A program made the translations under genes and the position numbers. Under the pieces are notes generated by a model. That model saw only the letters and a list, made by a program, of their open reading frames with translations. It was not told where the DNA came from and did not search any database. DNA of 62,496 bases, taken from positions 1-62,496 of the forward strand of contig JAAXIB010000032.1 of NCBI GenBank assembly GCA_012270585.1. Reading direction: 5' to 3'. Origin of the DNA: Nitrospirales bacterium (GTDB taxonomy: Bacteria > Nitrospirota > Nitrospiria > Nitrospirales > UBA8639). Shown piece by piece: positions 39,913 to 55,551 of this stretch (the first letter of the stretch is position 1; every line of letters starts with the position of its first letter).

Positions 39913-40740
39913 ATGAAAACACATCAATCAATCATTGTGATCGCGTTGTCGTGTTTGCTTTTGCTGATTTCGGCTTGTGGAAAGAAGTCGATTCGCGGCG
40001 TGAGTGGAGCCGAAGATCTTTCCTCAAGCCAGGGCAACCATGAGGTTACGGGTCATGACAAAGACCTTTACGGTGATTCCTCGGTCCGGTTTGAGGAATC
40101 CTCGGTGGCAGATGTCGGTGAAGCCGGGACAATAGAAGCGTTATCAATCGCCGATCTTGACGGTAACAGCGAGATAGCGATTGTCGGAGGAGGACAAGAG
40201 GGATCTTCTTCTATTTTTCCTGTCTCGACGGGAAGTGGAATATCGGGTTCTTCCGGAGGGGCTTCGGGGATGGGCAACGGCAATGGTATGGCCCGGGTCC
40301 TGAACCGGACTCCGTTGGCGACTTCCGGCCACTTGTCCGATACTTCTGCTGATCAGGAGAATGCGCGGAAAAATGGTGCGCATGTTTCGCAGGGCCTCCG
40401 GGATATCTATTTTGCGTATGACAGTTGGCGACTTTCCGAGAAAGCTCACCGGATTTTGGAATCCAATGCAAAGTGGCTCAAGACGTACCCGCATGCACGC
40501 ATTACCATAGGCGGGCATTGCGATGAGCGGGGAACGCAGGCGTACAATTACGTCCTCGGCGAAAGACGGGCTGAGACGGCCAAACAGTATTTGTCGCATT
40601 TGGGGGTTCCTTCATATCAAATGGTGGTGGTCTCTTACGGGAAGGATCGGCCGTTATGCCACGTGTTCAGTGCAGCATGTTTCCGGTCCAACCGTCGAGC
40701 ACATTTTTCCATCGATGTGAATACGGTGTCACGCGACTAG
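39913..40740 (+). CDS. pal: Peptidoglycan-associated lipoprotein (Pal/OmpA domain)
   Basis: The ATG follows AAGGAGGGG. Residues 1-21 are a lipoprotein signal with lipobox LISAC and lipidation Cys22. A long Gly/Ser-rich linker (to about 150) precedes an OmpA-like domain: DIYFAYDSWRLSEKAHRILE, IGGHCDERGTQAYN, LGERRAETAKQYL, VSYGKDRP and SNRRAHF. Two cysteines in the late loop could form a disulfide. Pal links the outer membrane to peptidoglycan. No tolB lies in the window. The linker is longer than in E. coli Pal. Confidence 0.92.
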   Translation: MKTHQSIIVIALSCLLLLISACGKKSIRGVSGAEDLSSSQGNHEVTGHDKDLYGDSSVRFEESSVADVGEAGTIEALSIADLDGNSEIAIVGGGQEGSSSIFPVSTGSGISGSSGGASGMGNGNGMARVLNRTPLATSGHLSDTSADQENARKNGAHVSQGLRDIYFAYDSWRLSEKAHRILESNAKWLKTYPHARITIGGHCDERGTQAYNYVLGERRAETAKQYLSHLGVPSYQMVVVSYGKDRPLCHVFSAACFRSNRRAHFSIDVNTVSRD

Positions 40741-40814
40741 CGTCGTGAGACGAGGTCCTGCCTTTCCCTGTATGTGTTCACTCATTCGTTGACAATTTCC
40801 AGCTCCCCAACACA

Positions 40815-40850
40815 CCCTCTCCCCTGGCGGGAGAGGGCTGGGGTGAGGGA
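40815..40850. repeat. Dispersed CCCTCTCCC/GGGAGAGGG palindrome
   Basis: Second copy of the unit seen at 24693, with the same GGGTGAGGGA tail, between pal and the convergent TPR lipoprotein gene. Confidence 0.75.
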
Positions 40851-40854
40851 GCAA

Positions 40855-41020
40855 AAGGCCTGGATCCCCGATTTCCTTTTCTGTCATTGGTATGAAAATA
40901 ACCTCCTTTTGTCATTCCCGTTTCCCCCTCTCCCCATCGTGGGAGAGGGGCTGTGGTGAGGGGGCAAAAGCAAAAACTCTGGATCCTCGATTACAAATGT
41001 CGAGGACAGGCGTCGAGGGG
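40855..41020. repeat. Mosaic of dispersed hairpin repeats (copy 3)
   Basis: Includes the CATTGGTATGAAAATAACCT block shared with 56292 and (inverted) 30930-30950, and a CTCGA/TCGAG hairpin near 40985-41018. A third CCCTCTCCC/GGGAGAGGG palindrome is nested at 40924-40964. Confidence 0.8.
40924..40964. repeat. Dispersed CCCTCTCCC/GGGAGAGGG palindrome
   Basis: Third copy; loop ATCGT, tail GTGGTGAGGGGG. It is nested inside the other repeat mosaic, showing that the two families co-locate. Confidence 0.72.
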
Positions 41021-41042
41021 AAGTTCCGCTCTCATCTGTTCA

Positions 41043-41597
41043 TCACGGTGCGGGAATACGCGCTCGTCTGGCGTCAATTCGTTCTGCCTCCTCGGTCCGA
41101 TTCACAAGCCGAAGCAAGCCGGCATATTGTTCAAGACTGGGAACGAGCCGGGGATGATCGACACCAAAGGCCGCCTCTCGGATTTTGAGCGCCTGTTCAA
41201 CCAAGGGGAGAGCCTTCGTATATTCTTTCCTGCTTTCAAAGACCAACGCCAAGCTGCTTAAGCTCATGGCCATGCGGGGGTCCATGGCCCCGACCGAGGC
41301 CGCCCACACGGGGAGTGCCCGCCAGAAATAGGACTCGGCCGCAGCCAAATCCCCCCGTACCCGATACAATTCCCCGACATTATGCAACGCTACAGCAAGA
41401 TCGCTATCCGGTTGTACTCTTGCTTCGGCCTCGCGAAGCGCCTCTAAAAGGACGAGTTCCTCCGCTGCCTTGTCATTCTCCCGTAACAGGGTGGGCTCGG
41501 AGGTTGAGGCAGGAGGCGAGGGCACACGTTCTTCGCAAGCCGCAAGGAAGAGCAACAAGAAAAGTCCGGCCATCTCTTTGCGCACAATCGGTTTCAT
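41043..41597 (-). CDS. TPR-containing lipoprotein
   Basis: The 184-residue protein begins with a lipoprotein signal (MAGLFLLLFLAAC after a short basic lead; lipidation at the Cys of LAAC). It then has three TPR-like repeats resembling the kinesin light chain type (VALHNVGELYRVRGDLAAAE, LSSLALVFESRKEYTKAL, LEQYAGLLRLVNRTEEAE). It is likely anchored in the outer membrane facing the periplasm. It is convergent with pal and divergent from the yihY-like gene. Confidence 0.85.
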   Translation of the reverse strand: MKPIVRKEMAGLFLLLFLAACEERVPSPPASTSEPTLLRENDKAAEELVLLEALREAEARVQPDSDLAVALHNVGELYRVRGDLAAAESYFWRALPVWAASVGAMDPRMAMSLSSLALVFESRKEYTKALPLVEQALKIREAAFGVDHPRLVPSLEQYAGLLRLVNRTEEAERIDARRARIPAP

Positions 41598-41760
41598 CAG
41601 TACGAAATCATAAAAAAATCCGATCGGTTCGCCAACCGTCGCGGTTCTCGCAGAGGGGTCGTTGGTCTGGACTTTTAGGAACGTCCATTGTAGCCTGCTT
41701 AAGTATCAGGGTAGCGGGTAAACCGAAGTTGTTGAGATCGCCGGTCATGAAGGAAAACCC

Positions 41761-43134
41761 GTGAACGTCTTGCATCGAATCGAGAAATTCTTTCGCCGGG
41801 ATTTGTGGCTTCAGGACTCCGCAACACTCCAGGGGTTGGCTGCGTTTTATATCAAACCCCTGCGGTTGATCGTGGTGGCGATCTCGGATTTTCGCGACGG
41901 TGTGCTCAGCATCCGAGCGACGAGTCTTGTTTCGACCACGCTGTTGTCCCTCGTCCCTTTCCTGGCGGTGACGTTCTCCGTGCTGAAAGCCTTTGGCGTG
42001 CATCAACAATTTGAACCGCTGCTCGCTCAGGGCCTGGAACCGTTGGGGGAAAAGGGCTCGGAAATCGCCGGTCACATTGTCGAATTCGTCAACAATCTCA
42101 AAGTCGGCGCCTTGGGGGCAGTTGGTCTGGCGGGGTTGTTTTATACCACGTTTTCGCTGATCGACAAAATCGAAGAAGCCCTCAATTACATCTGGCGCGT
42201 GCGCGACGCGCGATCCCTGACGAGAAAATTTACCGACTACTTGAGTGTAGTGCTGGTGGGACCCGTACTCGTCTTCACGGCCGTTGCCACCATAGCCTCG
42301 GCCCAAAGCCACTGGCTCGTGCAAACGATATTACGAATCGAACCCGTGGGGATCGCCGTGCTTTGGGTGACGGCCCTCATGCCGTTTGTGTTCATTTGTC
42401 TCGGGTTTACGTTTTTGTACAAGTTCGTTCCTCATACGCAAGTGAGGGTCGCGTCAGCCTTGGTGGGTGGCGTGACGGGCGGGATCTTGTGGAAAATCAT
42501 CGGGATGCTGTTTGCGTCTTTCGTCGCCGGAGCCACGCGCTACAGTGCCATCTATTCCGGTTTTGCCATCCTGATTTTGTTCCTCCTCTGGCTCTACGTC
42601 GGCTGGCTTATCGTCCTGGTCGGCGCACAGGTGGCCTATTATCATCAACATCCCACCGCCTATCTGACTCGCCTCCGATGGAAACAACACACCGCGGCCT
42701 TCCAGGAACATCTGGCCCTGACCATGCTCGTCCACGTCACGCGCCAGTACATAGCCGGTGCGCCCCCCTATCAGACTCAGCAATTGGCGGCAAAATTGGG
42801 GGTGCCCCTGTCCGCGCTCGAAGCCCTGGTCGAAAATTTCGTGGACCACGGTCTGATGTATCGAACGTCCGAGCCGAAAGGCATGGCCTTGGGACGGCCA
42901 CCGGAACGGATTACCGTGCTGGAAGTCCTTCAACTCGTCGCTCATAAAGACCGGACACCCACCGACGTGGCGCAGGAAGGCAACGACCCTGTTGGCGCGC
43001 TTCTGCGCCAACGCGATCAAGCGATCCGTCAGGCCTTGGCCGGTGTAACGCTCGCGATGCTCGCCACCGAAGAACCCGCCACCCTGCTTTCTCCCGAACC
43101 GTCTTCCGTCTTCGTGGACCAGCCCGTCTTGTGA
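41761..43134 (+). CDS. YihY/BrkB-family inner-membrane protein
   Basis: This 457-residue GTG-start protein has a soluble N-terminus and six membrane helices typical of YihY/UPF0761 (RATSLVSTTLLSLVPFLAVT, then IEEALNYIWRVRDARS and GGVTGGILWK). The ~150-residue C-terminal cytoplasmic tail looks like a winged-helix domain (TQQLAAKLGVPLSALEALV). Historic names (ribonuclease BN, BrkB) are not reliable functional guides. It borders the AT-rich defence island. Confidence 0.88.
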   Translation: MNVLHRIEKFFRRDLWLQDSATLQGLAAFYIKPLRLIVVAISDFRDGVLSIRATSLVSTTLLSLVPFLAVTFSVLKAFGVHQQFEPLLAQGLEPLGEKGSEIAGHIVEFVNNLKVGALGAVGLAGLFYTTFSLIDKIEEALNYIWRVRDARSLTRKFTDYLSVVLVGPVLVFTAVATIASAQSHWLVQTILRIEPVGIAVLWVTALMPFVFICLGFTFLYKFVPHTQVRVASALVGGVTGGILWKIIGMLFASFVAGATRYSAIYSGFAILILFLLWLYVGWLIVLVGAQVAYYHQHPTAYLTRLRWKQHTAAFQEHLALTMLVHVTRQYIAGAPPYQTQQLAAKLGVPLSALEALVENFVDHGLMYRTSEPKGMALGRPPERITVLEVLQLVAHKDRTPTDVAQEGNDPVGALLRQRDQAIRQALAGVTLAMLATEEPATLLSPEPSSVFVDQPVL

Positions 43135-43390
43135 TAGCTTTTGGCGGACCTTTCATGATGCTCAACAGGTTCTTGAGGCCTTTGCAATGGCTGGCATGGT
43201 TTTCAGGTAGTCTTTAGTTCAAGTAGAAATTTAGTGAGTCAGGGAGATATTGCAGTAGGAGGAGTCTAAAGTGAATAATGAAGTGAATATCAGGACGATG
43301 TCGTGTGGACCCGAAAATTTCGGGCATAATGTTATCTCCCATTTGGCATCTTTATGTTTAGGAAAAGCCCTTTGAGCGCAAAAGAAATTT

Positions 43391-44383
43391 ATGGATAAGA
43401 GATTTCAGGTATTCGTTAGTTCAACGTATGCTGATCTTAAAGAAGAACGGCAACATGTCATTCAAGCACTAATGGAAATGGATTGCATTCCAGCTGGCAT
43501 GGAGTTGTTTCCAGCAGCGGATGAGGAACAGTGGAAGTTTATCAAAAAGGTTATAGATGACTGCGATTATTACCTTTTAATCATTGGTGGCAGATATGGA
43601 TCTACAACAGAGGATGGTATCAGTTATACAGAAAGAGAGTTTGATTATGCTGTAGAAAAAGGGCTGAAAATTGTTGCTCTTATTCACGATGAGCCAGACG
43701 ATATTCCATTGGGAAAATCTGAAAAGGATCCAGAACTGAGAAATAAACTACTAGACTTCAAAAATAAAGTCAGAGCTGGCCGTTTAGTTAAGTCCTGGAG
43801 ATCAGCTGAAGAGCTTCCCGGACTTGTTGCACTAAGCATGACAAAAACCATCAAAATGTATCCGGCTGTTGGCTGGGTAAGAGCGAACCATGTTGCGAAC
43901 GAGAGTATACTTCAAGAGATTAACGAGCTTAGGAAAGAAAATTTCGAACTGCAAAAAAATCTTAAAGATACAGATAAAAAGCAAGAGTTGCGCATTGATG
44001 ATATAGCCAAAATTGATTCAAAGTTTACAATCCACGGTAGCTATTTCGTGCGCGCTTATGATCGCAAATTCAATTTTACGAGTACGCTGTCGTGGAGAGA
44101 GCTTTTTGCTTTAATTGCTCCCTATCTGATGGAACAACTAAATGATGCTTCTGTAAAAGAAAGGCTTGCATCAGCTTTACTTGAACGAGAAGGAAAGTCT
44201 GGAAGTTATATTTCAGTAAATGACCAAGAATTCAAAACTGTGGCAATTCAATTAAAGGCATATGGTTTGGTCAAAATCGAGCATTTAGCGACTACAAAAG
44301 GTGGTATGGCTTTATTCTGGTCTTTAACTTCTGAAGGTGAGCGACTGATGATTGAAAGTAGGATAATCCGTCAAATTGATTAA
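43391..44383 (+). CDS. DUF4062 protein with C-terminal winged-helix-like domain
   Basis: The 330-residue protein begins with the DUF4062 pattern ([19 protein letters not shown], then [19 protein letters not shown] and [22 protein letters not shown]), a TIR/SIR2-like Rossmann domain of about 150 residues often found in defence and signalling proteins. A coiled coil (about 175-200) and a winged-helix-like region (about 275-325) follow. Codon use is AT-rich, unlike yihY before it. It begins the defence island, 125 bases upstream of the restriction-modification gene. NAD hydrolysis or nucleotide signalling is possible but not shown. Confidence 0.85.
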
Positions 44384-44508
44384 CGCAGTGATCAAAGTTC
44401 GCCATCCAGGTTGATTCTCGGCAAGTTTTTGACATTCTGCCCTTGACTCAATCGTTAGATTCGCAAACCAACTATTATACAGGCCCCACAAAACCAAACG
44501 AAGAATAG

Positions 44509-46617
44509 ATGACACAGCCGGATGTTATCCAGTCGATACTTAAAGACAGTAATTATCATCTCGCTTTGTTCTCGGATGATGAAATTGCATCCTTGCGTGA
44601 GAGAATCTTTACGAAAACCACCAAAGGTAAGGAAACTGCTTTTGTCAACTGTGTTGTCAGGGATAAAGAGATGCAGTTAAAACCGGAAGAAATCGTTCGC
44701 CAGCTTTATGCTGCACGACTTATCAAGGAGTACGGCTATCCCAAGAAGCGGCTTGCCTTTGAATATCCGGTCAATTTCGGTAGAGAAAAGAAAAGTGCCG
44801 ACGTTGTCATTTTTGACAAAGATCGTCCTGATGCTGCCTATATTATCGTCGAACTAAAGAAGCCCAAACTCAAAGATGGGAAGAACCAACTCCGTTCCTA
44901 TTGCAACGCCACAGGTGCCCCCATCGGTGTATGGACAAACGGTGAGAAGATTTCCCATTACCACCGCAAAGACCCGAACTATTTCGAAGACATCACCGAC
45001 GTCCCCAAGGCAACGCAAGGCCTCAAGGACATACTCAGCGAACGTTTTACCTTGAAAGGTCTGGTTCTCAAAGACAAACTCGCCAATGAGCGAAAATCCC
45101 TGAAAGACATCATCCTGGAAATGGAAGATGAAGTACTGGCAAACGCAGGGGTTGATGTATTCGAGGAGGTGTTCAAGCTCATCTTTACCAAGCTCTATGA
45201 TGAATATTTAAGCCGTGATGATAAAGGCATTCTCAACCACTTTCTGAGGCAGGTCACCAAAACCGCCGTCCATGAACCTGCTCCACCCAGTTATCTTGGC
45301 GGTTCGGATTATGATGCTCTCAAGGAAGCAGTCAGCGGTGTCGGGGATGATCGTTTTAGAGTCATGGAGTTCAGAAACACCGGACAGACCGATACCGAAC
45401 TGAAAAACAAGATTCAGGACCTGTTCGATCGAGCCAAAGAGCAATGGAAGGGAGTATTTCCCGAAAGCGCGATGTTCGAGCTTTCTGATAGTCATTTGGC
45501 CGTCTGTGTCTCCAGCTTGCAGAACGTGAAGTTGTTTAACTCCAATCTATTGGTTGTAGACGAGGCGTTCGAGTATCTGGTCAACAAATCCGCCAAAGGC
45601 GAAAAAGGGCAATACTTCACGCCGCGTCACGTCATTGATATGTGCGTGCAAATGCTGAACCCCAAGCGGGGCGAATACATGATTGATACCGCCTCCGGCA
45701 GTTGCGGATTTCCCGTGCACACCATTTTCAAGCTGACGGGTCATCTGTTCACCAATGAAGAAATCCCGCAAGATGACAAGCAGAATGTCCTGAAGGTCTT
45801 CGGCATCGACTTCGACGAAAAGACGGTCAGGGTGGCCCGTACCCTGAACCTGATTGCCGGGGATGGGGAAACCAATGTGCTGCATTTGAATACACTGGAT
45901 TTTGAACGGTGGGGCGATAAAACCGAAAAAGACAAAAAATGGATCAACACCTATGGCAATGGCTTTCAACGGCTGGAAAAGTTGAGAACCGAACAAGGCC
46001 AAAACAAGCAGTTCAACTTCGATGTGCTGATGGCCAATCCACCTTTTGCCGGAGACATCAAGGAAGGCCGTATACTGCATCAATACGAACTTGGGTTCAA
46101 AGCGGATGGCAAAAAGGCCCAAAGTAAGGTGGGGCGTGATATTTTATTTATCGAGCGGAATCTGGCCTTTCTGAAGCCTGGCGGACGCATGGCTATCGTG
46201 CTACCGCAAGGCCGCTTCAACAATACGTCCGATAAACATATCCGTGAATTTATCGCAGAGCGTGGTCGTATTCTTGCGGTAGTCGGATTACACGGTAACA
46301 CCTTCAAGCCCCATACCGGCACTAAAACCAGCGTCCTGTTTGTGCAGAAGTGGGATGAGAAGCTTTGCCCCAAGGTCGATGACTACCCTATCTTCTTTGC
46401 GGTTTCTGAAAAAGGTGGCAAAGACAATTCCGGCGATTATGTCTATGTAAAAAACGACAATGGTCAAGACAAGCTGGATACAAACGGTCATCTGATCGTT
46501 GACCATGATCTACATAACCACGCCGGTGAATTACCGGACGGGATCGCCGAAGCCTTTATTGATTGGGCGAAGGGTGAAAATTTGAGCTTTTGGAGGGATA
46601 AACCATGCAATCACTAA
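44509..46617 (+). CDS. hsdM: Type I restriction N-terminal nuclease domain fused to N6-adenine methylase (HsdM)
   Basis: The 702-residue protein has an N-terminal HSDR_N-like PD-(D/E)xK domain with Asp98 (SADVVIFD), Glu115 and Lys117 (VELKKP). It continues into HsdM: an N-terminal helical part, the AdoMet motif DTASGSCGF (393-401) and the catalytic NPPF (510-513). The normal motif I Pro/Gly positions are changed (T and C), but the order is intact. With HsdS it would methylate, and with the nuclease domain possibly cut, DNA at a bipartite site. No HsdR motor domain is in the window. The stop overlaps the antitoxin start by 13 bases. Confidence 0.9.
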   Translation: MTQPDVIQSILKDSNYHLALFSDDEIASLRERIFTKTTKGKETAFVNCVVRDKEMQLKPEEIVRQLYAARLIKEYGYPKKRLAFEYPVNFGREKKSADVVIFDKDRPDAAYIIVELKKPKLKDGKNQLRSYCNATGAPIGVWTNGEKISHYHRKDPNYFEDITDVPKATQGLKDILSERFTLKGLVLKDKLANERKSLKDIILEMEDEVLANAGVDVFEEVFKLIFTKLYDEYLSRDDKGILNHFLRQVTKTAVHEPAPPSYLGGSDYDALKEAVSGVGDDRFRVMEFRNTGQTDTELKNKIQDLFDRAKEQWKGVFPESAMFELSDSHLAVCVSSLQNVKLFNSNLLVVDEAFEYLVNKSAKGEKGQYFTPRHVIDMCVQMLNPKRGEYMIDTASGSCGFPVHTIFKLTGHLFTNEEIPQDDKQNVLKVFGIDFDEKTVRVARTLNLIAGDGETNVLHLNTLDFERWGDKTEKDKKWINTYGNGFQRLEKLRTEQGQNKQFNFDVLMANPPFAGDIKEGRILHQYELGFKADGKKAQSKVGRDILFIERNLAFLKPGGRMAIVLPQGRFNNTSDKHIREFIAERGRILAVVGLHGNTFKPHTGTKTSVLFVQKWDEKLCPKVDDYPIFFAVSEKGGKDNSGDYVYVKNDNGQDKLDTNGHLIVDHDLHNHAGELPDGIAEAFIDWAKGENLSFWRDKPCNH

Positions 46618-46811
46618 AATCGATTGATTTATCCGTCTTGCCAGAATGGGCGCGCCAGGAAGTGTATGATTTCTTTCTGTTCATGAAACAGCGCATCGAA
46701 CATCAACGGGTATTATCAAACGTCAGCGAGTGTGCTTTGCTCAGCGAAGACAGTCTGGCGGAAGATTGGAATAGATCAGAGGAAGACGAGGCATGGAAAA
46801 ATTTTCAGTAG
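46605..46811 (+). CDS. Antitoxin-like small protein (DUF2281-like)
   Basis: The 68-residue protein has GGAGGG before its ATG, which lies inside the end of hsdM. The pattern LSVLPEWARQEVYDFFLFM resembles DUF2281-type antitoxins, and an acidic tail (LAEDWNRSEEDEAW) is suited to cover a toxin. It overlaps the MazF-like toxin by 19 bases, the usual antitoxin-toxin order. Confidence 0.75.
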   Translation: MQSLKSIDLSVLPEWARQEVYDFFLFMKQRIEHQRVLSNVSECALLSEDSLAEDWNRSEEDEAWKNFQ

Positions 46812-47131
46812 GAGATATTGTGCTGGTCCGTTTTCCTTTCTCGGACCTGAGCCAGCAGAAGTTAAGACCTGCGCTGGTACTTGCTGACGTGCAAAGAGGC
46901 GATTGCATATTGTGCCAGATTACCAGCCAGCCATATCATGACCAACGAGCCATTCAATTAGAGCAGAACAGCTTTACCCGTGGACATTTAATCAAGACAA
47001 GCTATGTCAGGCCAGCCAAATTATTTACTGCGAATGCCGACATTATCGAAAGGGCAGTTGCGCATCTCAAACCAGAGATTAGACAGGACGTGGTCCGTCA
47101 CATCGTGGAACTGTTGCATCATGAGAATTAG
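46793..47131 (+). CDS. MazF/PemK-type endoribonuclease toxin
   Basis: The 112-residue protein has the MazF fold pattern: GDIVLVRFPFSDLSQQKLRP followed by ALVLADV, ILCQITSQ and HLIKTSYVRPAKLFT. MazF-type toxins cleave mRNA at short motifs. Length and motifs look intact. It sits between hsdM and hsdS on the same strand, so loss of the restriction operon would release the toxin. Confidence 0.88.
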   Translation: MEKFSVGDIVLVRFPFSDLSQQKLRPALVLADVQRGDCILCQITSQPYHDQRAIQLEQNSFTRGHLIKTSYVRPAKLFTANADIIERAVAHLKPEIRQDVVRHIVELLHHEN

Positions 47132-47162
47132 ATGACTGGGGTTTGGAGTAGATAGGTAAGCT

Positions 47163-48581
47163 GTGCAGTATTCGATAGCAAAAAAAGGAACGCTCAATGA
47201 AGAGTTTAGGATCGATGCTGAATACTATAGCTTGGATAACCTAACTAAAGAGGATGCCGTAACAAGAAACAAATATAGACGGCTTGGTGATATATGTGAA
47301 TTAATTGCTGGCCCTTTTGGTTCTACCGTTACCACTGAAAAATATGATGCCACAAGTGATAAACGTTATATAAGAGGAAAAGATATACAATAGTTTTTTA
47401 TCGAAAAAAATGATGCTGTTTATTTAGATAATAATTTGTTCGACGATTTGCCTCAATTTCACCTGCGAGCAGAGGACATCTTGTTAACTGTTGTTGGAAT
47501 GAAATTTGGCAAATCCGCAATAATCTTTGCAGAAAACTGTCCAGCAGTTTTTAGTTGCAAAAGTACGCTCGTACGGAATCCATCCGTTAATGTTTGGTAT
47601 CTCCTGACTTATCTATCTTCAAGGGTTGGCTATAGCTTAATTAGGCGAGGACAGAGGGGAGCTGCTCAGCCAGGAATTAATCTACTTGATATTCGAAATG
47701 TTCCAGTTCCAGTACTCGGCAGCAATTTTCAATCAAGAATAGAAATTTTAGTAAAGCAAGCCAAGTCTTTAGGAATGGCTTCGGATACTGTATTTGTCGA
47801 TGCCCAAACTTTCCTTCTTTTCGAACTTGGACTGGCTGATTGGCATCCTAAACACCAACTAACTTTTGTCAAAGACTATTCAGACCTGGAACAAGCCGAA
47901 CGCATTGACGCTGAGTACTTTCAGCCGAAATATGAGGAAATAGATAAAGCCTTAATGAAATTCAACGGCAAGTCAATTGGTTCCTGTGAGTTTTTAGACA
48001 TCACCACAGGACAGTATTGTGATAATTACGTCGCCAGTAATGAAGGGCAGCCCTATCTTAGAGGTACAGACTTAGCTGCTGGTAGCGTGGAAATCGATAA
48101 TCTGGTTTACATAAAGGAAGAAGATCAAATTCTAAGTAAACAAGCTCAAGAGGGGGATGTTGTTGTAACAAGAGTGGGAACCATAGGTTTATCTGCTAGG
48201 ATTCCTAAAGAATGTGCTGGAGGTACAATTAGTGATAACTTAATTCGTGTCAGAATATTAGATAAGAAGAAAATAGACTCCTACTATCTGACATGTTTTT
48301 TGGGCTCAATTATTGGCAAGTCCTTAATGCTAAGAAATGCGAGAGGAAGCGTTCAACAGCGGCTGAACCAAGAAACTCTCAAAGAAATTCTTCTTCCAAT
48401 TCCTGAGATAGAAATTCAAGCAAGAATCAAACAAAAAGTTACCGAATCCTTTAACCTGTGGAACCAATCCAAACACTTGCTGGAGTGCGCAAAACGAGCC
48501 GTGGAAATGGCCATCGAATCGGACGAAAAAACGGCCAGTGACTGGCTGGAAAATGAAACCGAAGAAATGCGAATATCATGA
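47163..48581 (+). pseudogene. hsdS: HsdS specificity subunit split by one in-frame TAG
   Basis: A GTG at 47163 opens a type I specificity subunit (SIAKKGTLNEEFRIDAEYYS, CELIAGPFGSTVT, RYIRGKDIQ). A single TAG at 47391-47393 stops it after 76 codons, yet the same frame continues at once with FFIEKNDAVYLDNNLFDDL through the first and second target-recognition domains and central repeats (GSVQQRLNQETLKEILLPIP, against GAAQPGINLLDIRNVPVPV) to 48581. Without the stop it would be about 472 residues, a normal HsdS. Causes could be a C-to-T change of a CAG codon, amber suppression or a sequencing error. As read, a second-frame TTG at 47436 might restart translation. Confidence 0.88.
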
Positions 48582-48662
48582 GATGCTGTATGCGGAAGAA
48601 AATTCTGTTGCCCTTCATTATCCCCGGTGAATCTGGTCGATATCTCAGCATTGGAGAATTTT

Positions 48663-49541
48663 ATGCAGGGTCTTTGCAAGCTTTGCAATAATTATTCTCA
48701 ATTAGAGGAAAGCCACTTCATTCCAAAATTCATTGTCAGGTGGCTCAAAAAGACCTCTATCACAAGCTATCTCAGGAAATTGGATGATATGCATAAACGT
48801 GTTCAAGACACGGCAAAGGGATATTGGTTATGCGGTGACTGTGAGGATCTATTTTCTGGATGGGAAACAAAGTTCGCCAACAAGATCTTTTTCCCATTTG
48901 TGGATAAGGGAGAGTCGGTAGCGAATTATGGCGAATGGATGTCTAAATTTTGTGCGTCCATTTCATGGCGGGCTCTCACTTATATTAGAAGCCAAAATCC
49001 CCAAAAAGACAAACCCAAAGAGTATTACGAAACTCTTGATTTTGCTGAAAAACATCTTGCTTTGTATGTGCTCGGAAAAGTCCACAATCTCAATCAATAT
49101 GAACAACATGTCTTTCACCTATCGGGAATAGAGTCCACCACTCTAGATAGACTGCCCCCTAATATTAATAGATATTTTTTGAGAACGGTGGCAATAGATA
49201 TCATTGGAAATTCAAGTGATCTATTTGTATATACAAAAATACCTTCATTCATGATATTGGGTTGTATTAAGGTCGAAAAGCTCACAAAAATGCGTTCAAG
49301 TCGTATTGCGCTTAAATCGGGAAAGATCAGCCCTGGGAAATTTTGGTGGCCAGACGGCTTTGCGGAGTATTTACTCGAACAAGCCGACAAAGTTAACCAG
49401 GGCTTAAGCAAAATTCCACAAGAGCATTTAGATAAAATAGAAATGTCTATCGCAAATAATCCAGAGCAAGCCGCCAAATCTAAATTAATTGAAGCCTTCC
49501 TTCAAGACTATGCGATGTTTGGGGAAGAAGTATTCCAATAA
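48663..49541 (+). CDS. HNH-like zinc-finger protein of the defence island
   Basis: The ATG at 48663, preceded by GGAGAA, is preferred to 48627. The 292-residue protein begins with CKLCNNYSQLEESHFIPKF, a form of the HNH start (CxxC, SHxIP), followed about 45 residues later by CGDCEDLFSGWETKFANKIF. The second His/Asn of a classical HNH is not obvious, so nuclease activity is uncertain. The remainder is helical with no known motif. AT-rich composition matches the island. It follows hsdS on the same strand and may be a second effector. Confidence 0.8.
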   Translation: MQGLCKLCNNYSQLEESHFIPKFIVRWLKKTSITSYLRKLDDMHKRVQDTAKGYWLCGDCEDLFSGWETKFANKIFFPFVDKGESVANYGEWMSKFCASISWRALTYIRSQNPQKDKPKEYYETLDFAEKHLALYVLGKVHNLNQYEQHVFHLSGIESTTLDRLPPNINRYFLRTVAIDIIGNSSDLFVYTKIPSFMILGCIKVEKLTKMRSSRIALKSGKISPGKFWWPDGFAEYLLEQADKVNQGLSKIPQEHLDKIEMSIANNPEQAAKSKLIEAFLQDYAMFGEEVFQ

Positions 49542-49606
49542 CGAATCGACTGGCTAGCAGAGGGAGAAGGCCCACTACCAGTAGGTGCACAGGAAAACGT
49601 CGTAGG

Positions 49607-50548
49607 ATGGCGGAGATTTCGGTAGGCTCATCTCTCATGACTCCGGAAAACAATCTGACGATAGCCCTGGTCCAGATGGCTTGTGGGGTTGTGCCTCACG
49701 AGAACCTCAGCTCTGCCCTGGCAAACGTTGAAGAAGCCGCACGGCGTGGGGCCAGGGTCGTCTGTCTGCCGGAATTGTTTCGTTCGCAATATTTTTGCCA
49801 AAAGGAAGATACGGCATTATTTGATTTGGCCGAGCCCGTTCCCGGTCCCTCGACCGAGGCCTTGGGCAAGGTCGCGGGCAAGCACAACGTGGTGCTGATC
49901 GTCCCGATTTTTGAACGACGGACGGCCGGGATTTATCACAACTCGATTGTCGTGGTGGATGGCGACGGGTCCATTGCCGGCCTTTATCGCAAGATGCACG
50001 TTCCCGATGATCCGGCCTACTACGAGAAGTTTTATTTCACTCCGGGAGACAGAGGCTTTCAGGCGATTCAAACGAGTGTGGGCAAAATTGGCACCCTTAT
50101 CTGTTGGGACCAATGGTATCCAGAAGCCGCCCGCCTTACCACGCTTCAGGGCGCCGAGATGTTGTTCTACCCCACGGCCATCGGGTGGCATCCGTCGGAA
50201 AAAGCCCAAGAAGGTGAATTGCAACGAAGTGCCTGGCAGACCATTCAACGCAGTCACGCGATTGCGAATGGCGTGTTTGTCGCCGCGGTGAATCGGGTGG
50301 GCCATGAGAAACCCGATGCGGGCGGAGACGGCATCGAATTTTGGGGGAGTTCGTTCGTGTGCGACCCATTCGGCACGGTCCTGGCCGAAGCGTCGATCGA
50401 CAAAGAAGAGATTCTCCTCGCCGAAGTGAACGTGAGCCGGGTTGAGGAAGTCCGGCGCCATTGGCCTTTTCTCCGGGATCGTCGGGTCGATGCGTATGGC
50501 GGCCTCACGAAACGGTTCTTTGACCAGAGCGACGATGGCGAGTGCTAG
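49607..50548 (+). CDS. aguB: N-carbamoylputrescine amidohydrolase
   Basis: The 313-residue nitrilase-family enzyme has the catalytic triad Glu56 (CLPELF), Lys129 (YRKMHVPD) and Cys166 (LICWDQWYPEAAR). The sequences RSQYFCQKED and EFWGSSFVCDPFG fit the AguB subgroup. It hydrolyses N-carbamoylputrescine to putrescine, CO2 and ammonia. A start at ATG 49637 is also possible; neither has a strong ribosome site. It overlaps aguA by 14 bases. Composition returns to that of the main genome after the AT-rich island. Confidence 0.94.
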   Translation: MAEISVGSSLMTPENNLTIALVQMACGVVPHENLSSALANVEEAARRGARVVCLPELFRSQYFCQKEDTALFDLAEPVPGPSTEALGKVAGKHNVVLIVPIFERRTAGIYHNSIVVVDGDGSIAGLYRKMHVPDDPAYYEKFYFTPGDRGFQAIQTSVGKIGTLICWDQWYPEAARLTTLQGAEMLFYPTAIGWHPSEKAQEGELQRSAWQTIQRSHAIANGVFVAAVNRVGHEKPDAGGDGIEFWGSSFVCDPFGTVLAEASIDKEEILLAEVNVSRVEEVRRHWPFLRDRRVDAYGGLTKRFFDQSDDGEC

Positions 50549-51683
50549 AAAGAAGACCCCGGACCCCTTACCCCGTGGCCCTCTCCCTTCTAAAAAGAGG
50601 GCACTGAATCGCGTATCGACTCCTGCTCAATCAGGATTTCGTATGCCCGCGGAATGGGAGCCGCATGAGGCAACCTGGCTGGGATGGCCCCATAACGCCT
50701 CTGATTGGCCAGGGAAACTGGGTGCCGTTCATTGGGTCTACGGGGAGATCGTTCGAAAATTGGCGGCTGGGGAACGGGTCCGTATTCTGGTTCAGTCCCA
50801 GTTTCACGAAGAGCGTGCGCGGAGTGTTTTGGCACGAGCCGGAGCCGATCTTTCCGCCGTCGAGTGTTTTCGGATTGCAACGGACCGTGGGTGGACTCGT
50901 GACTTCGGTCCGATTTTCGTGACGCGGAATCGGCCGGCTGCTGAAGTGGCCATCGCACGGTTCCGATTTACCGCGTGGGCCCGTTACCCTGATTGGAAAA
51001 ACGACAATCGGGTGCCGGTGAAACTGGCTTCCCGGTTGACATGCCGCTCCTTCCCCGTCATTCACAAAGGGCATAGGGTGGTCCTGGAAGGGGGTGGCAT
51101 TGACGTGAACGGAGTCGGAACCGCGTTGACCACCGAAGAATGTTTGCTGGATCGTGCCGTCCAGGTCCGCAATCCGGGGTTTCTGGCTGCGGACTATGAG
51201 TCGGTGTTACAAGAATCCCTGGGTGTCACCAAGGTCGTCTGGTTGAACAAAGGCATTGCCGGGGACGACACCCATGGGCACGTGGATGATGTGTGTCGAT
51301 TCGTGAATCCGAGGACCGTGGTATTGTGTCAGGAGCGAAACAGCGGTGACGCCAATTATTGCGTGTTGGCTGAAAATCGGGAGCGCCTGGAGAACGCGAC
51401 GTTGGAAGATGGAACAAAGATCGAGGTGGTGCCATTGCCCATGCCGGCCCCCCTGTCCTTTGACGGCCGGCGGCTTCCGGCGAGCTACGCCAATTTTTAT
51501 ATTGCGAATGCGGCGGTTCTGGTTCCGACGTTTAATGATCCCAATGATCGGATGGCCCTGGGCATTTTGAGTGAATTGTTTCAGGATCGCCCGGTTATCG
51601 GGGTCCACGCAGTCGATCTTGCATGGGGGTTCGGGACGTTGCATTGTCTCACTCAACAGCAACCGGCCCTGCCCCCCGGGTAA
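50535..51683 (+). CDS. aguA: Agmatine deiminase
   Basis: The longest frame begins at 50442, but the ATG at 50535, overlapping the aguB end, is the likely start (382 residues). Landmarks are MPAEWEPHEATWLGWPHN, RDFGPIFV, DDTHGHVDDVCRF and the catalytic Cys371 in FGTLHCLTQQQP. It converts agmatine to N-carbamoylputrescine, the substrate of AguB. A short basic Pro-rich N-terminal extension precedes the domain. Confidence 0.94.
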   Translation: MASARKKTPDPLPRGPLPSKKRALNRVSTPAQSGFRMPAEWEPHEATWLGWPHNASDWPGKLGAVHWVYGEIVRKLAAGERVRILVQSQFHEERARSVLARAGADLSAVECFRIATDRGWTRDFGPIFVTRNRPAAEVAIARFRFTAWARYPDWKNDNRVPVKLASRLTCRSFPVIHKGHRVVLEGGGIDVNGVGTALTTEECLLDRAVQVRNPGFLAADYESVLQESLGVTKVVWLNKGIAGDDTHGHVDDVCRFVNPRTVVLCQERNSGDANYCVLAENRERLENATLEDGTKIEVVPLPMPAPLSFDGRRLPASYANFYIANAAVLVPTFNDPNDRMALGILSELFQDRPVIGVHAVDLAWGFGTLHCLTQQQPALPPG

Positions 51684-51693
51684 ACGTTATCTC

Positions 51694-52623
51694 ATGTCCG
51701 GACCATTCACACTTCCTTCTCCGCTTCGTCTTGGATGGATCGGGACAGGTGTCATGGGGGCTGCCATGGTGGGACACCTCCTGGCCAGGAACCATGCGCT
51801 CACCGTCTTTTCACGAACGAGATCAAAAGCCGAAGGTCTGCTTCAACGAGGGGCGCGATGGGTGGATTCGCCGGCACGAGTAGCCGATGCGTCCGACGTG
51901 GTTTTCACGATGGTGGGGTTCCCCCGGGACGTGTCCGACGTGTACTTGGGTGAAGCAGGCCTCGTTCATCAGGCACGTGCGGGAATGGTGTTCGTGGACA
52001 TGACGACCGCTCCACCGAGTCTGGCCGGAACGATAGCGGAGGGCGTCAGGGCTCGGGGCGCGCATTTCCTGGATGCCCCGGTTTCGGGTGGGGACGTGGG
52101 GGCACGCAACGCGTCGTTGTCCATTATGGTGGGCGGAGAACCCCGCGTCGTGGAAGCGATCCGGCCGCTGTTTGAATCCTTGGGTCAGAGCATTGTCCAT
52201 CAGGGCGCAACGGGTGCCGGCCAGCACACCAAGCTCTGCAATCAGATCACGATCGCCGGAACGATGATCGGGGTCTGCGAATCGTTATTGTATGGCTATC
52301 GTGCGGGGTTGGATCTGGAAACCATGTTGCAATCCATCCGGGGCGGTGCCGCGGCCTGTTGGACCTTGGACAACCTGGCTCCTCGAATACTGGCTCGAAA
52401 CTTCGCCCCCGGGTTCTTTGTTGAACATTTTGTGAAGGACATGGGCATTGCCTTGGAAGAAAGCAGGCGCATGGGGCTTGTCCTGCCCGGGCTCTCCCTG
52501 GTGCATCAACTCTATCTGGCCGTTCAGGCTCATGGGCATGGACGTTCCGGCGCGCATGCCTTGATGGTTGCGTTGGAGGAATTGTCGAACGTTCACGTGA
52601 GCGCAACGCCGGCCGGGACCTGA
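51694..52623 (+). CDS. Beta-hydroxyacid dehydrogenase (3-hydroxyisobutyrate dehydrogenase family)
   Basis: The start is the ATG at 51694 (309 residues); the longer frame overlaps aguA. Rossmann motif LGWIGTGVMGAAMVGHL, substrate motif FLDAPVSGGDVGARN, catalytic-Lys region GAGQHTKLCNQ and NFAPGFFVEHFVKDMGIAL place it in the HIBADH/GLYR family. The substrate is not defined by these motifs (3-hydroxyisobutyrate, tartronate semialdehyde or succinate semialdehyde-type reductases all fit). It lies 10 bases after aguA, so co-transcription is likely. Confidence 0.9.
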   Translation: MSGPFTLPSPLRLGWIGTGVMGAAMVGHLLARNHALTVFSRTRSKAEGLLQRGARWVDSPARVADASDVVFTMVGFPRDVSDVYLGEAGLVHQARAGMVFVDMTTAPPSLAGTIAEGVRARGAHFLDAPVSGGDVGARNASLSIMVGGEPRVVEAIRPLFESLGQSIVHQGATGAGQHTKLCNQITIAGTMIGVCESLLYGYRAGLDLETMLQSIRGGAAACWTLDNLAPRILARNFAPGFFVEHFVKDMGIALEESRRMGLVLPGLSLVHQLYLAVQAHGHGRSGAHALMVALEELSNVHVSATPAGT

Positions 52624-52636
52624 TTCCTCTGTTCCG

Positions 52637-54388
52637 ATGCGTACCGTCGATGATCTCAGAAACATCCTCGCCCGGATCGATGGCCGGGGGTACAAGGCGT
52701 ACAAGGATCTGCAAGGCGCCTACGCCTATCCCCGGTTGACCCTGTTCATCGACCACGTGCAAGGCGACCCCTTTGCGTCCCCTTCCAAAATTCGGGTGCG
52801 AGTCCCCGGTGCCGTTGCCAAGCTCCCGCCCGATCTTTTTGCAGATCGTGGCCGACGAGTGGCGTTGCAGGATTTTTTGATCCGTGAAGTCCATCACGCG
52901 ATTCGGCACGTGTGCCGGGGCAATCGGGGGATCGGAAAAAGCGGGCTCATTGCGATTGACGTGGGCGGCCAGGAGGTGTTGGAACGAACGGCGATGGTGG
53001 TGACGCCGCAATGGGTCGAAGCGCGCTTGTCGTTGGGCCTGCCGGCACAGGGCCGTACCATCCTCGGCCGGCAGGCCGAAGCCATGCTCTGTCAGGAAGT
53101 GCCGGAAATTGTGGAACGGGCTTTGAAGTGGGAACACGTTGATCAGGAACGCGCGCGTACCTTTGTCGACTGTGTCGACAATCAGGAATCGATCCGCGCG
53201 CAGCTCGATGCTTTGGGGTTGGTGGCCTTCATCGCCGACGGGGCGATTCTTCCAAGAATCAGTGGGGCGTCCGATCGTCCTCTTTCACGTGAACGGGCGC
53301 AACCGTTCCACGCTCCCGCGTCGCTTCGCGTGTCGATTTCCATCCCGCATCCGGTTTCGCAGGACGGCAGGCTCACGCACTCGCTAACGGGTTTCGGGGT
53401 CCCCCAAGGTGTCACGTTAATCGTGGGAGGCGGGTATCACGGCAAATCCACGGTCCTGCGGGCTCTGGAGCGGGGGGTGTATCCTCACGTGCCGGAGGAT
53501 GGGCGGGAATACGTGGTGACCACGGAACGGGCCGTCAAAATCCGTGCCGAAGATGGACGTTCTATCGAACGGGTCGACATCAGCGGGTTTATCAAAAATC
53601 TTCCTTACGGGCAGGAGACCGGACGATTTTCAACGGACAATGCAAGTGGGAGTACCAGTCAAGCCGCCTCGATACTCGAAGCCGTCGAAGTCGGGGCCAC
53701 CACGCTGTTATTGGACGAAGATACGTCCGCGACGAATTTCATGGTGAGGGACGCCCGCATGCAGGCGCTGGTTCACAAAGAGCATGAACCCATCACGCCG
53801 TTCGTGGATCGCGTTCGTGAATTATATGAAAGCCACGGGGTGTCCACGGTATTGGTGATGGGAGGCTGCGGTGATTATTTCGACGTGGCCGACACCGTGA
53901 TTGCGATGCAGGACTATCAGCCGCTCGACGTGACGGAAGAAGCGCAACGAATCGCACGGGAGTTCCGGACCAAACGGGAAATCGAAACGACTTCGCCCTT
54001 ATCCGGGGTCACGTCCAGAATTCCCGTGCGGGAAAGTCTCGATCCTTCCCGTGGGAACCGTGAAGTAAAAATTGAGGCCAGATCCGTGGAGGCCATTGCC
54101 TTTGGACATGAGGTGATTGATGTGAGCGGAGTGGAACAACTCGTAGACGTCAGCCAAACCCGGGCGGTGGGCTTTGCCATCCATCTGGCGGCACACCGTT
54201 TCCTGGACGGACGGGTGAACGTGAAAGCCGCGGTCCGGAGTCTTGCCGAACTGTTTGACGACGCCGGTTTGGATGGACTCGATCCCTATCACCAGGGCGA
54301 GCGACATCCGGGAAATTTCGCCCGGCCTCGTGCCTTGGAAATTGCCGCGGCGCTCAACCGGCTCCGCACGCTTCGGATCCGGGAATAG
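52637..54388 (+). CDS. ABC-class ATPase (COG3044, MRB1590-like)
   Basis: The 583-residue protein has an N-terminal domain (about 1-240), then a P-loop GGGYHGKST (about 267-275) and further ABC_ATPase landmarks: GFIKNLPYGQ, TDNASGSTSQAASILEA (a signature-like stretch) and LLLDEDTSATNFMVRD (Walker B). A C-terminal domain follows. The family is the soluble ABC-class ATPase group related to trypanosome MRB1590, proposed to bind RNA. No transporter domain is present. It follows the dehydrogenase by 13 bases. Its link to polyamine genes is unexplained. Confidence 0.9.
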   Translation: MRTVDDLRNILARIDGRGYKAYKDLQGAYAYPRLTLFIDHVQGDPFASPSKIRVRVPGAVAKLPPDLFADRGRRVALQDFLIREVHHAIRHVCRGNRGIGKSGLIAIDVGGQEVLERTAMVVTPQWVEARLSLGLPAQGRTILGRQAEAMLCQEVPEIVERALKWEHVDQERARTFVDCVDNQESIRAQLDALGLVAFIADGAILPRISGASDRPLSRERAQPFHAPASLRVSISIPHPVSQDGRLTHSLTGFGVPQGVTLIVGGGYHGKSTVLRALERGVYPHVPEDGREYVVTTERAVKIRAEDGRSIERVDISGFIKNLPYGQETGRFSTDNASGSTSQAASILEAVEVGATTLLLDEDTSATNFMVRDARMQALVHKEHEPITPFVDRVRELYESHGVSTVLVMGGCGDYFDVADTVIAMQDYQPLDVTEEAQRIAREFRTKREIETTSPLSGVTSRIPVRESLDPSRGNREVKIEARSVEAIAFGHEVIDVSGVEQLVDVSQTRAVGFAIHLAAHRFLDGRVNVKAAVRSLAELFDDAGLDGLDPYHQGERHPGNFARPRALEIAAALNRLRTLRIRE

Positions 54389-54602
54389 ACACTTCCGTGT
54401 TATACGTAGTATGTTTTTGTCATGAATTGCCGAACATTCCTTCAAGGACCTGATGACGGCCATTCTGTGGCAGCGCCCGGAAGTAGAAAAGGCTGGAGTA
54501 TAGTAAGGGAAGGGCAGGTGGTGTAGAAGGGTGGGTCGGGTTAGCGTAGCGTCACCCGACAACTGGTATTTCTTTCGTATCAATGAGAGGGAAGGAACGC
54601 GT

Positions 54603-55163
54603 ATGCGACCTGGTTTTGCCGTTGATATCGATAACGTCGTGGCTCAGGCCGAACGGGAAGTTCAACGAATTTTTCATGAATTAACCGGAAGGCCGTGGCC
54701 TTCCGAGATGTATGCCAGTGCCGGCGGGCTGGACGCCAGTGATCTTGATCCAAGTCTGATTGAACGGATTTTTGATTACTTTCATGAGCGCAGTATTCCA
54801 ACGCTGCCGTTGGTTCCCGGTGCGCGACGGGTGTTACAACAACTTCAGGAAGGGTATCGGATCGTCCTGATCACGGCACGTCGCCCGACGGCTCGCCCAC
54901 AAACCTTGGCCTGGTTGGAGGAACACGGGATTCCGTTCGATGAACTCCATCACGCCAAAGACAAAACCGACGTGGCGACGGGCATTGTCCTGGCGGTGGA
55001 CGATCATCCCGCGCACGTGAGTGAGTATTTGAATCAAGGCGTCCGAGTCTTTCTGATGGATCAACCCTGGAACCGAACGTTTTCAGCCCCGGGTGCAACC
55101 AGGGTATCCGGCTGGGATGAGTTATTACGGAACCTCAGTATGAGTTCAACCCCGGCCTCATGA
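54603..55163 (+). CDS. HAD-like 5'-nucleotidase/phosphatase family protein
   Basis: The ATG at 54603, with GGGAAGGA upstream, is preferred to 54531 (186 residues). HAD motifs: FAVDIDNVVAQA (motif I, DxDN with the second Asp present), VLITARR (motif II, Thr) and a late acidic pair LAVDDHP. A helical cap (about 25-70) resembles 5'(3')-deoxyribonucleotidases. The substrate is not defined. The preceding 54389-54602 has no gene and probably contains the promoter. Confidence 0.85.
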   Translation: MRPGFAVDIDNVVAQAEREVQRIFHELTGRPWPSEMYASAGGLDASDLDPSLIERIFDYFHERSIPTLPLVPGARRVLQQLQEGYRIVLITARRPTARPQTLAWLEEHGIPFDELHHAKDKTDVATGIVLAVDDHPAHVSEYLNQGVRVFLMDQPWNRTFSAPGATRVSGWDELLRNLSMSSTPAS

Positions 55164-55203
55164 AGAACCCAAATCCTTCTCTCACGCCTCTGAATTCCAT
55201 TCC

Positions 55204-55545
55204 ATGGCTATCGCTACGGTGACGTTTCGCCGCTGCCTCGTGAATGCTTCTGAAGCCGGGAGTGATGAAGCGCAGATCGGTTCACGGGTATTCTTTGATC
55301 TGAATATCGGGGAACAAGAGTTCGTTGACGTGTATGCGGACGTGACACAGGCGAATCGGGAAGGGGACGCCACGCTATTCGTCACGCCCCCGCGGGGCTA
55401 TGATGGGCCGTTGAACCTTCAGGTGTTTCAAGGTCTCGTCGAGTTTTACTATCGGCAGGCTACGGGAGGCGGTCCTGATGGACTCGGCCTGATGCTGCAA
55501 GATTGGGTCGTCGAACAGGAAATGGTCGTACAGTTTGAGGTGTAA
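55204..55545 (+). CDS. Hypothetical protein, about 113 residues
   Basis: The protein is beta-rich and acidic with no signal peptide; the segments ATLFVTPPRGYDGPLNLQVF and LVEFYYRQATGGG look structured. I recognise no family. It follows the HAD-like gene by 40 bases and shares its composition. The converging gpx stop is 6 bases after its own. Confidence 0.75.
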   Translation: MAIATVTFRRCLVNASEAGSDEAQIGSRVFFDLNIGEQEFVDVYADVTQANREGDATLFVTPPRGYDGPLNLQVFQGLVEFYYRQATGGGPDGLGLMLQDWVVEQEMVVQFEV

Positions 55546-55551
55546 TGCCTT

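What the first reader, a model, noticed from the sequence alone, without database searches (positions are those of the whole stretch)
47391..47393. One amber codon splits an otherwise intact hsdS
The frame before and after TAG encodes continuous specificity-subunit sequence with no other damage in about 470 codons. This points to a very recent mutation, read-through, or an error. With HsdS lost, the methylase would be inactive while the toxin-antitoxin pair may be what keeps the locus.
Basis: seen in the sequence. Interest (0 to 1): 0.6.

Follow-up and report, generated by a model that had tools for sequence, protein, structure and literature searches.

The report
Stop codon breaks restriction specificity gene
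A bacterial DNA-defence gene that should tell a cutting-and-marking enzyme which DNA sequence to act on carries one stray stop codon, so the defence is probably switched off in this genome; this is an ordinary way for such systems to be lost.

Summary
The in-frame amber codon at 47391-47393 is real in the given sequence. It is codon 77 of an otherwise open 472-codon frame (47163-48578, TGA stop 48579-48581) that encodes a two-TRD specificity (S) subunit. In 14 of 14 near-full-length relatives the aligned codon is a sense codon for varied, mostly polar residues, and the alignment is gapless there, so one base substitution explains the lesion. The partner upstream is not a plain HsdM but a 702-aa nuclease-methylase (RM) fusion; the best PDB sequence matches of both subunits are those of BsaXI, a Type IIB enzyme. 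Loss of S should therefore silence restriction and modification together. Read-through is unlikely: RF1 is present, TAG ends neighbouring genes, no CUA-anticodon tRNA was found (tRNA set incomplete), PylS is absent, the context is UAGU. The lesion looks recent: no second lesion, no relaxed selection on RM. The toxin-antitoxin idea is weakened: one sister species deleted mazF yet keeps RM and S; another keeps everything. Sequencing or strain-mixture error cannot be excluded without reads. Broken S genes are well documented. Interest is low.

The parts
44509..46617 (+). RM subunit gene, 702 aa: N-terminal HSDR_N_2 nuclease-like domain fused to an N6-adenine methylase
   Evidence: Pfam PF13588 residues 59-166 and PF02384 residues 350-623; best PDB match RM.BsaXI 8w0p, E 3e-20; 92% identical to G001 and 93% to G009
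46605..46811 (+). small ORF overlapping the RM end, likely antitoxin of the MazF pair
   Evidence: no Pfam or NCBIfam match; overlaps the mazF start; 88% and 79% identical copies at the same place in G001 and G009; antitoxin role inferred from position
46793..47131 (+). MazF/PemK-like toxin gene, intact, ends in TAG
   Evidence: PF02452 residues 7-107 of 112, E 1.7e-9; 92% identical in G009, deleted except for a stub of about 15 codons in G001
47163..48581 (+). S (specificity) subunit gene, GTG start, 472 codons, interrupted by one amber codon
   Evidence: AlphaFold model pLDDT 80, S-subunit fold
47391..47393 (+). the in-frame TAG, codon 77 of S, next base T; in a turn just before a strand of TRD1
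   Evidence: secondary structure of the model
47232..47711 (+). TRD1 (residues 24-183 of the model), cut after its first third by the amber
   Evidence: model; internal repeat: residues 10-203 match 47883-48458
47721..47825 (+). first conserved long helix (CR1, residues 187-221)
   Evidence: model
47925..48398 (+). TRD2 (residues 255-412)
   Evidence: PF01420 in the post-amber piece; model
48408..48518 (+). second conserved long helix (CR2, residues 416-452)
   Evidence: model
47481..47483 (+). in-frame TTG with an AGAGGA stretch upstream, the best-looking restart site after the amber; would drop 106 residues including half of TRD1
   Evidence: scan; use as a start is not shown
48627..49541 (+). 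downstream gene, 304 aa, function unknown, intact; 75% identical in G001
   Evidence: neighbour, not needed for the explanation

Best explanation
The locus is a two-gene, BcgI/BsaXI-like restriction-modification system: a nuclease-methylase fusion (RM) plus a separate S subunit, with a MazF toxin-antitoxin pair between them. A single recent base substitution made codon 77 of S an amber stop. Ribosomes release a 76-residue stub that lacks two thirds of TRD1, both conserved helices and TRD2. Without S the RM subunits cannot find or bind their target, so neither methylation nor cleavage takes place. Because both activities need the same S, they are lost together, and the host is not cut by an unmatched nuclease. 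Shown here: the stop, the otherwise intact frame, the RM-S anatomy, the intact partner gene, no other close S gene in the assembly. Inferred: that no working S is made, that the enzyme is off, and that the mutation is fixed in the population.
For: In-frame TAG with no other lesion. Sense codons at that column in 14 of 14 near-full-length relatives, gapless. RF1 gene over its cut-off. TAG ends 7 of 47 ORFs of the window picked by a greedy longest-ORF rule, mazF just upstream among them. None of 41 ARAGORN tRNA calls has a CUA anticodon. PylS only at 21 bits against a cut-off of 178. Amber followed by U, a context in which read-through is reduced in E. coli (PMC5289835, abstract). No close S paralogue: besides the S gene itself only one weak match, 20% identity. 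RM is intact and shows no relaxed selection on this lineage: 14 nonsynonymous and 75 synonymous lineage-specific codon changes, against 19/77 in G001 and 20/54 in G009 (Fisher p 0.57 and 0.085). Under neutral decay more than about 0.02 substitutions per site should have brought a second lesion (with assumed indel rates), against dS 0.53-0.60 to the sister RM genes. Precedent: an early stop at residue 62 of NgoAV HsdS inactivates that system (PMC6789123 passages).
Against: No reads, no second isolate of the species and no methylation data were available, so a base error or a minority variant is not excluded. The tRNA search lacks Tyr, Asn, Ile-GAT, Ala-TGC, Thr-GGT and Gly-TCC genes, so a suppressor could sit in unassembled or unsearched DNA. 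A restart at an internal TTG could yield a shortened S. Recency rests on assumed neutral rates, and its signs fit an error equally well.
Confidence: 0.7

Rival explanations
1. Sequencing, assembly or strain-mixture artefact: the organism, or most of its population, has an intact S gene and a working RM-S system.
For: One isolated base change in an otherwise perfect gene; the genome is an 89-contig assembly of 2.5 Mb; RM shows no relaxed selection.
Against: 0 of 31 ABC_tran matches of the same genome hold a stop and 0 of 7 Methylase_S matches, so the assembly is not rich in false stops. A substitution inside a codon is not the usual homopolymer error, although a run of six T follows the codon.
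Confidence: 0.17
2. Shortened S by restart: translation starts again downstream, for example at TTG 47481, and gives a protein with a defective TRD1 but both conserved helices and TRD2, which pairs with itself and gives the enzyme a new, TRD2-only specificity.
For: An in-frame TTG with AGAGGA upstream lies 88 bases after the stop. An N-terminally deleted EcoDXXI S recognises a palindrome of its C-TRD half-site (PMC3874165 passages), and BsaXI CR1-TRD2-CR2 gives nicking with RM (PMC9159934 section 16).
Against: The amber cuts inside TRD1, not at a domain border, so a broken TRD1 remnant would remain. BsaXI TRD2-CR2 alone was not expressed. Among Type I systems homodimers were reported for Type IC only. 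TTG is a weak start.
Confidence: 0.07
3. Programmed or suppressor read-through of the amber makes some full-length S.
For: The frame is intact on both sides; some tRNA genes were not found, so a suppressor is not fully excluded.
Against: RF1 present, no CUA tRNA found in the own genome or in single-contig G009, no PylS, UAGU context, no other relative carries a stop there.
Confidence: 0.04
4. The toxin-antitoxin pair in the operon holds the now useless RM locus in the genome. Not exclusive with the best explanation.
For: Both TA genes are intact beside the broken S, and MazF is under constraint against G009 (dN/dS 0.12).
Against: G001 lost mazF and keeps RM and S; G009 keeps all; retention is explained as well by recency alone.
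Confidence: 0.1

Closest known systems
BsaXI, Type IIB restriction-modification enzyme (RM + S)
   Same: Best PDB sequence match of both subunits: RM E 3e-20, S E 7.9e-6. RM is a nuclease-methylase fusion, S has TRD1-CR1-TRD2-CR2 order, and the S model aligns over 411 residues at Z 17.5, rmsd 8.6.
   Different: RM here is 702 aa, the RM.BsaXI chain 916 aa; here S carries an amber and a MazF pair sits between RM and S. Cleavage on both sides is not known here. By fold alone PacII S and M. genitalium S score slightly higher.
BcgI-like systems of Helicobacter pylori (HP1471/HP1472, JHP1364/JHP1365)
   Same: RM fusion plus S, with S switched off by stop codons or a G-repeat frameshift (PMC3936762 section 27).
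   Different: There a slippery G-repeat makes S phase-variable; here a plain substitution with no repeat that could switch it back.
NgoAV hsdS with an early stop
   Same: Premature stop at residue 62 of S inactivates the whole system in some strains (PMC6789123 passages).
   Different: Type IC system; there caused by a one-base insertion, here by a substitution; methylation was measured there.
MADS (methylation-associated defence system) MAD2/MAD5
   Same: RM matches MAD2 at 287 bits and S matches MAD5 at 173 bits.
   Different: Both far under the NCBIfam cut-offs of 720 and 400 bits; other MADS genes were not looked for.

Membership tests
Type IIB (BcgI-like) restriction-modification system | Nuclease and N6-adenine methylase fused in one RM subunit | tested here: met
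   PF13588 and PF02384 in one 702-aa protein; PADLOC's best label is Type I methyltransferase, NCBIfam names none over cut-off
Type IIB (BcgI-like) restriction-modification system | Separate S subunit with two TRDs and two conserved helices | tested here: met
   S read through the stop gives TRD1-CR1-TRD2-CR2 in the model, matched to 8w0p_C and Type I S chains; in the DNA as it stands the gene is broken
Type IIB (BcgI-like) restriction-modification system | No separate HsdR translocase in the locus | tested here: met
   HSDR_N family PF04313 found only on contigs C62 and C48; by eye no HsdR among window ORFs 40000-56000 nor in the 13-kb relative L060
Type IIB (BcgI-like) restriction-modification system | Cleavage on both sides of a bipartite site; (RM)2S assembly | not testable with these tools
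   needs biochemistry
Classical Type I (hsdR, hsdM, hsdS) | hsdR with ATP-driven translocase beside hsdM and hsdS | tested here: not met
   HsdR-type genes lie on other contigs, C62 and C48, where other M and S genes lie
Pseudogene by single nonsense substitution | One in-frame stop, intact relatives with a sense codon at the column | tested here: met
Pseudogene by single nonsense substitution | Gene product absent or inactive in the cell | not testable with these tools
   needs reads, proteomics or a methylome
Amber read-through or recoding | CUA-reading tRNA, missing RF1, or PylS | tested here: not met
   the tRNA set found is incomplete, so the tRNA part is weak
Phase-variable S gene | Repeat tract or silent S cassettes that could switch the lesion on and off | tested here: not met
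   the lesion is a substitution with a gapless alignment; no second copy of TRD1 in the genome by protein search (the only other own match is TRD2 of the same gene)
MADS defence system | MAD2 and MAD5 over NCBIfam cut-offs | tested here: not met
   287 of 720 and 173 of 400 bits

The most novel reading that the evidence does not exclude
The amber does not kill the system but changes its target: restart after the stop gives an S that lacks a working TRD1 and pairs two TRD2 halves, so the RM fusion marks and cuts a symmetrical site. This would be a natural one-base specificity switch in a Type IIB-like enzyme.
Probability: 0.05. Interest if true: 0.45.

Novelty: new member of a known kind. Interest (0 to 1): 0.12.

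Why it matters
On its own it is one more broken specificity gene; such losses are common (7 of 87 pneumococcal hsdS TRDs had premature stops in PMC7557576, passages). It has modest value as a clean case of an RM-fusion system in which one subunit carries both activities, so that one lesion in S should turn both off safely. The site also lets one compare three sister genomes at one chromosomal place: one lost the toxin, one broke S, one kept everything.

Tried and rejected
Hidden frameshift or compensating indels: rejected, as the alignment is gapless at the site. Switch by homopolymer: a run of six T lies right after the TAG, but the frame is intact across it, so slippage there would add a lesion, not remove this one. 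Complementation by another S gene: the other S matches of the genome lie on C47, C48 and C62 beside other M genes; a search with the post-amber protein gave only one weak own match besides itself (20% identity). Selenocysteine-type or odd tRNA as suppressor: C73:170-264 is a tRNA-like gene with a long variable arm that ARAGORN does not call; its anticodon loop reads UUGGCAA by eye, hence GGC, not CUA; no tRNA-Sec match reached its cut-off. dN/dS of S itself: not attempted, since the closest relative is only 49% identical and S TRDs are swapped between relatives. Viral contigs: the TRD1 piece found no relative; the S alignment found 6, of which 5 were used for the fold. Plasmids: 10 records with distant S matches, none above 60% identity, not followed.

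Rows dropped: of 24 loci examined, three pairs are the same gene, leaving 21 relatives aligned; 19 of 21 have a residue at the amber column and 2 a gap. For one search I kept the 14 that align over most of S and dropped 7 (L056, L069, L072, L075, L077, L078, L080). Relatives there were cut from stop to stop, so absence of stops in them is by construction; the independent statement is the stops column (81 of 82 rows none, the one exception the window itself).

The organism was not identified.

Full report
Observation. The codon TAG lies at 47391-47393, in frame with a GTG start at 47163 and a TGA stop at 48579-48581. The frame holds 472 codons and no second stop. The piece before the stop (76 residues) and the piece after it (395 residues) both match the same intact S subunits. 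The closest, L060 from a record titled uncultured Piscirickettsiaceae bacterium, is 49% identical over residues 4-467; residues 4-76 are 66% identical. At the amber column 14 of 14 near-full-length relatives have sense codons for varied, mostly polar residues, with no gap in L060 beside it. Single substitutions from TAG reach several residues, so one base change is enough; I do not name a mend. Intact copies of the gene family exist in sister genomes.

What the gene is. The S protein read through the stop was folded from a 7-row alignment (mean pLDDT 80, pTM 0.78). It shows TRD1 (residues 24-183), a long helix (187-221), TRD2 (255-412) and a second long helix (416-452). Foldseek and VIA-align 2 place it with S subunits: PacII S (Z 19.6, rmsd 5.7, 351 aligned), M. 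genitalium S (Z 19.2, rmsd 7.6, 336 aligned), BsaXI S 8w0p_C (Z 17.5, rmsd 8.6, 411 aligned). The amber falls in a turn just before a strand inside TRD1. The stub would keep only the first third of TRD1.

The partner. The gene upstream (44509-46617) is a fusion of an HSDR_N_2 nuclease-like domain and an N6-adenine methylase. Its best PDB match is RM.BsaXI at E 3e-20, and the post-amber S piece has S.BsaXI as its best match at E 7.9e-6. HsdR-type genes were found only on two other contigs, and relatives in L060 and in five IMG/VR contigs show RM directly followed by S. PADLOC files the RM protein under Type I methyltransferases, so the Type IIB label is my reading of the anatomy. The locus thus works like a BcgI/BsaXI-type two-gene system. 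The review PMC3874165 (passages) states that both subunits of such enzymes are needed for cleavage and for methylation. The loss of S should turn off both, which is a safe way to lose a restriction enzyme (inference).

Is it read through? RF1 is encoded. Of 47 ORFs of the window picked greedily by length (some may not be genes), 7 end in TAG, among them mazF just upstream of S. Of 42 tRNA matches in the own genome ARAGORN genes, none with a CUA anticodon; the remaining one reads GGC by eye. The set lacks Tyr, Asn, Ile-GAT, Ala-TGC, Thr-GGT and Gly-TCC genes, and single-contig G009 lacks three of these too (Asn, Ile-GAT, Ala-TGC), so the search misses some genes. G009 has no CUA tRNA among the genes called from its 43 matches either. 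PylS is not present over its cut-off. The next base is T; PMC5289835 (abstract) states that +4U reduces read-through in E. coli. I give read-through 4%.

How old is it? 218 of 4239 single substitutions in S would make a stop. With assumed indel rates of 0.05-0.1 per substitution, at least one further lesion would be expected with 95% chance after 0.018-0.025 neutral substitutions per site. RM genes of the sister species differ by dS 0.53-0.60 from this one, so the lesion is young on that scale if real. RM itself shows 14 nonsynonymous and 75 synonymous changes special to this lineage, against 19/77 and 20/54 in the two sisters, no sign of relaxed constraint. Both facts also fit a base error. 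In the same genome 0 of 31 ABC_tran matches and 0 of 7 Methylase_S matches hold a stop, so false stops are not common here.

The toxin-antitoxin pair. In G000 (this genome), G001 and G009 the RM gene stands at the same place beside aguB (the name aguB is my reading of the protein). G009 has RM, antitoxin, MazF and intact S. G001 has RM, antitoxin and intact S, but mazF is reduced to about 15 codons followed by a stop. G000 has RM, antitoxin and MazF, but S is broken. So the toxin is not needed to keep RM and S, and the idea that it holds this locus is possible but untested.

Precedents. NgoAV HsdS with a stop at residue 62 is inactive in some gonococci (PMC6789123, passages). Two H. pylori BcgI-like systems are off through a stop before S and a G-repeat in S (PMC3936762, section 27). 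Seven of 87 pneumococcal hsdS TRD sequences have premature stops (PMC7557576, passages). Truncated S proteins can stay active with a new symmetrical target (EcoDXXI, EcoR124I, NgoAV; PMC3874165, passages), and for BsaXI TRD1-CR1 is active while TRD2-CR2 was not expressed and CR1-TRD2-CR2 nicks (PMC9159934, abstract, passages and section 16). PMC11997821 (BsaXI cryo-EM) was seen as abstract and outline only. This leaves a small chance for the restart model (TTG 47481).

Verdict. The best reading is a young nonsense allele of the S gene of a Type IIB-like system, switching off restriction and modification together (0.7), with an artefact as the chief rival (0.17). It is a new example of a known kind. 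Interest 0.12.

Noticed in passing
L085 (G001), about 7840-8090; window 46605-47131: G001 keeps the antitoxin gene and a stub of about 15 mazF codons directly before an intact S gene, as if mazF had been deleted together with the spacer before S.
   Followed up: partly
window 48627-49541: 304-aa protein with CxxC-like pairs near its start, no Pfam, NCBIfam or PADLOC match, 75% identical in G001 at the same place; the third gene of this defence spot.
   Followed up: partly
L060 7371-7988; L139 4379-4963; L055 2655-3038: A different third gene of about 200 aa (shorter in L055) follows RM-S in these relatives, without a Pfam match over cut-off; perhaps an accessory part of this RM family.
   Followed up: partly
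L048 170-264 minus strand (own contig C73): tRNA-like gene with a long variable arm and an anticodon loop that reads GGC by eye; Rfam tRNA 34 bits, not called by ARAGORN.
   Followed up: partly
L139, L140, L141, L142, L143: Five IMG/VR contigs carry RM-fusion plus S pairs of this family with overlapping open frames, so the system occurs on contigs filed as viral.
   Followed up: no
window 43391-44383: DUF4062 protein directly upstream of RM, a possible further member of the defence spot.
   Followed up: no
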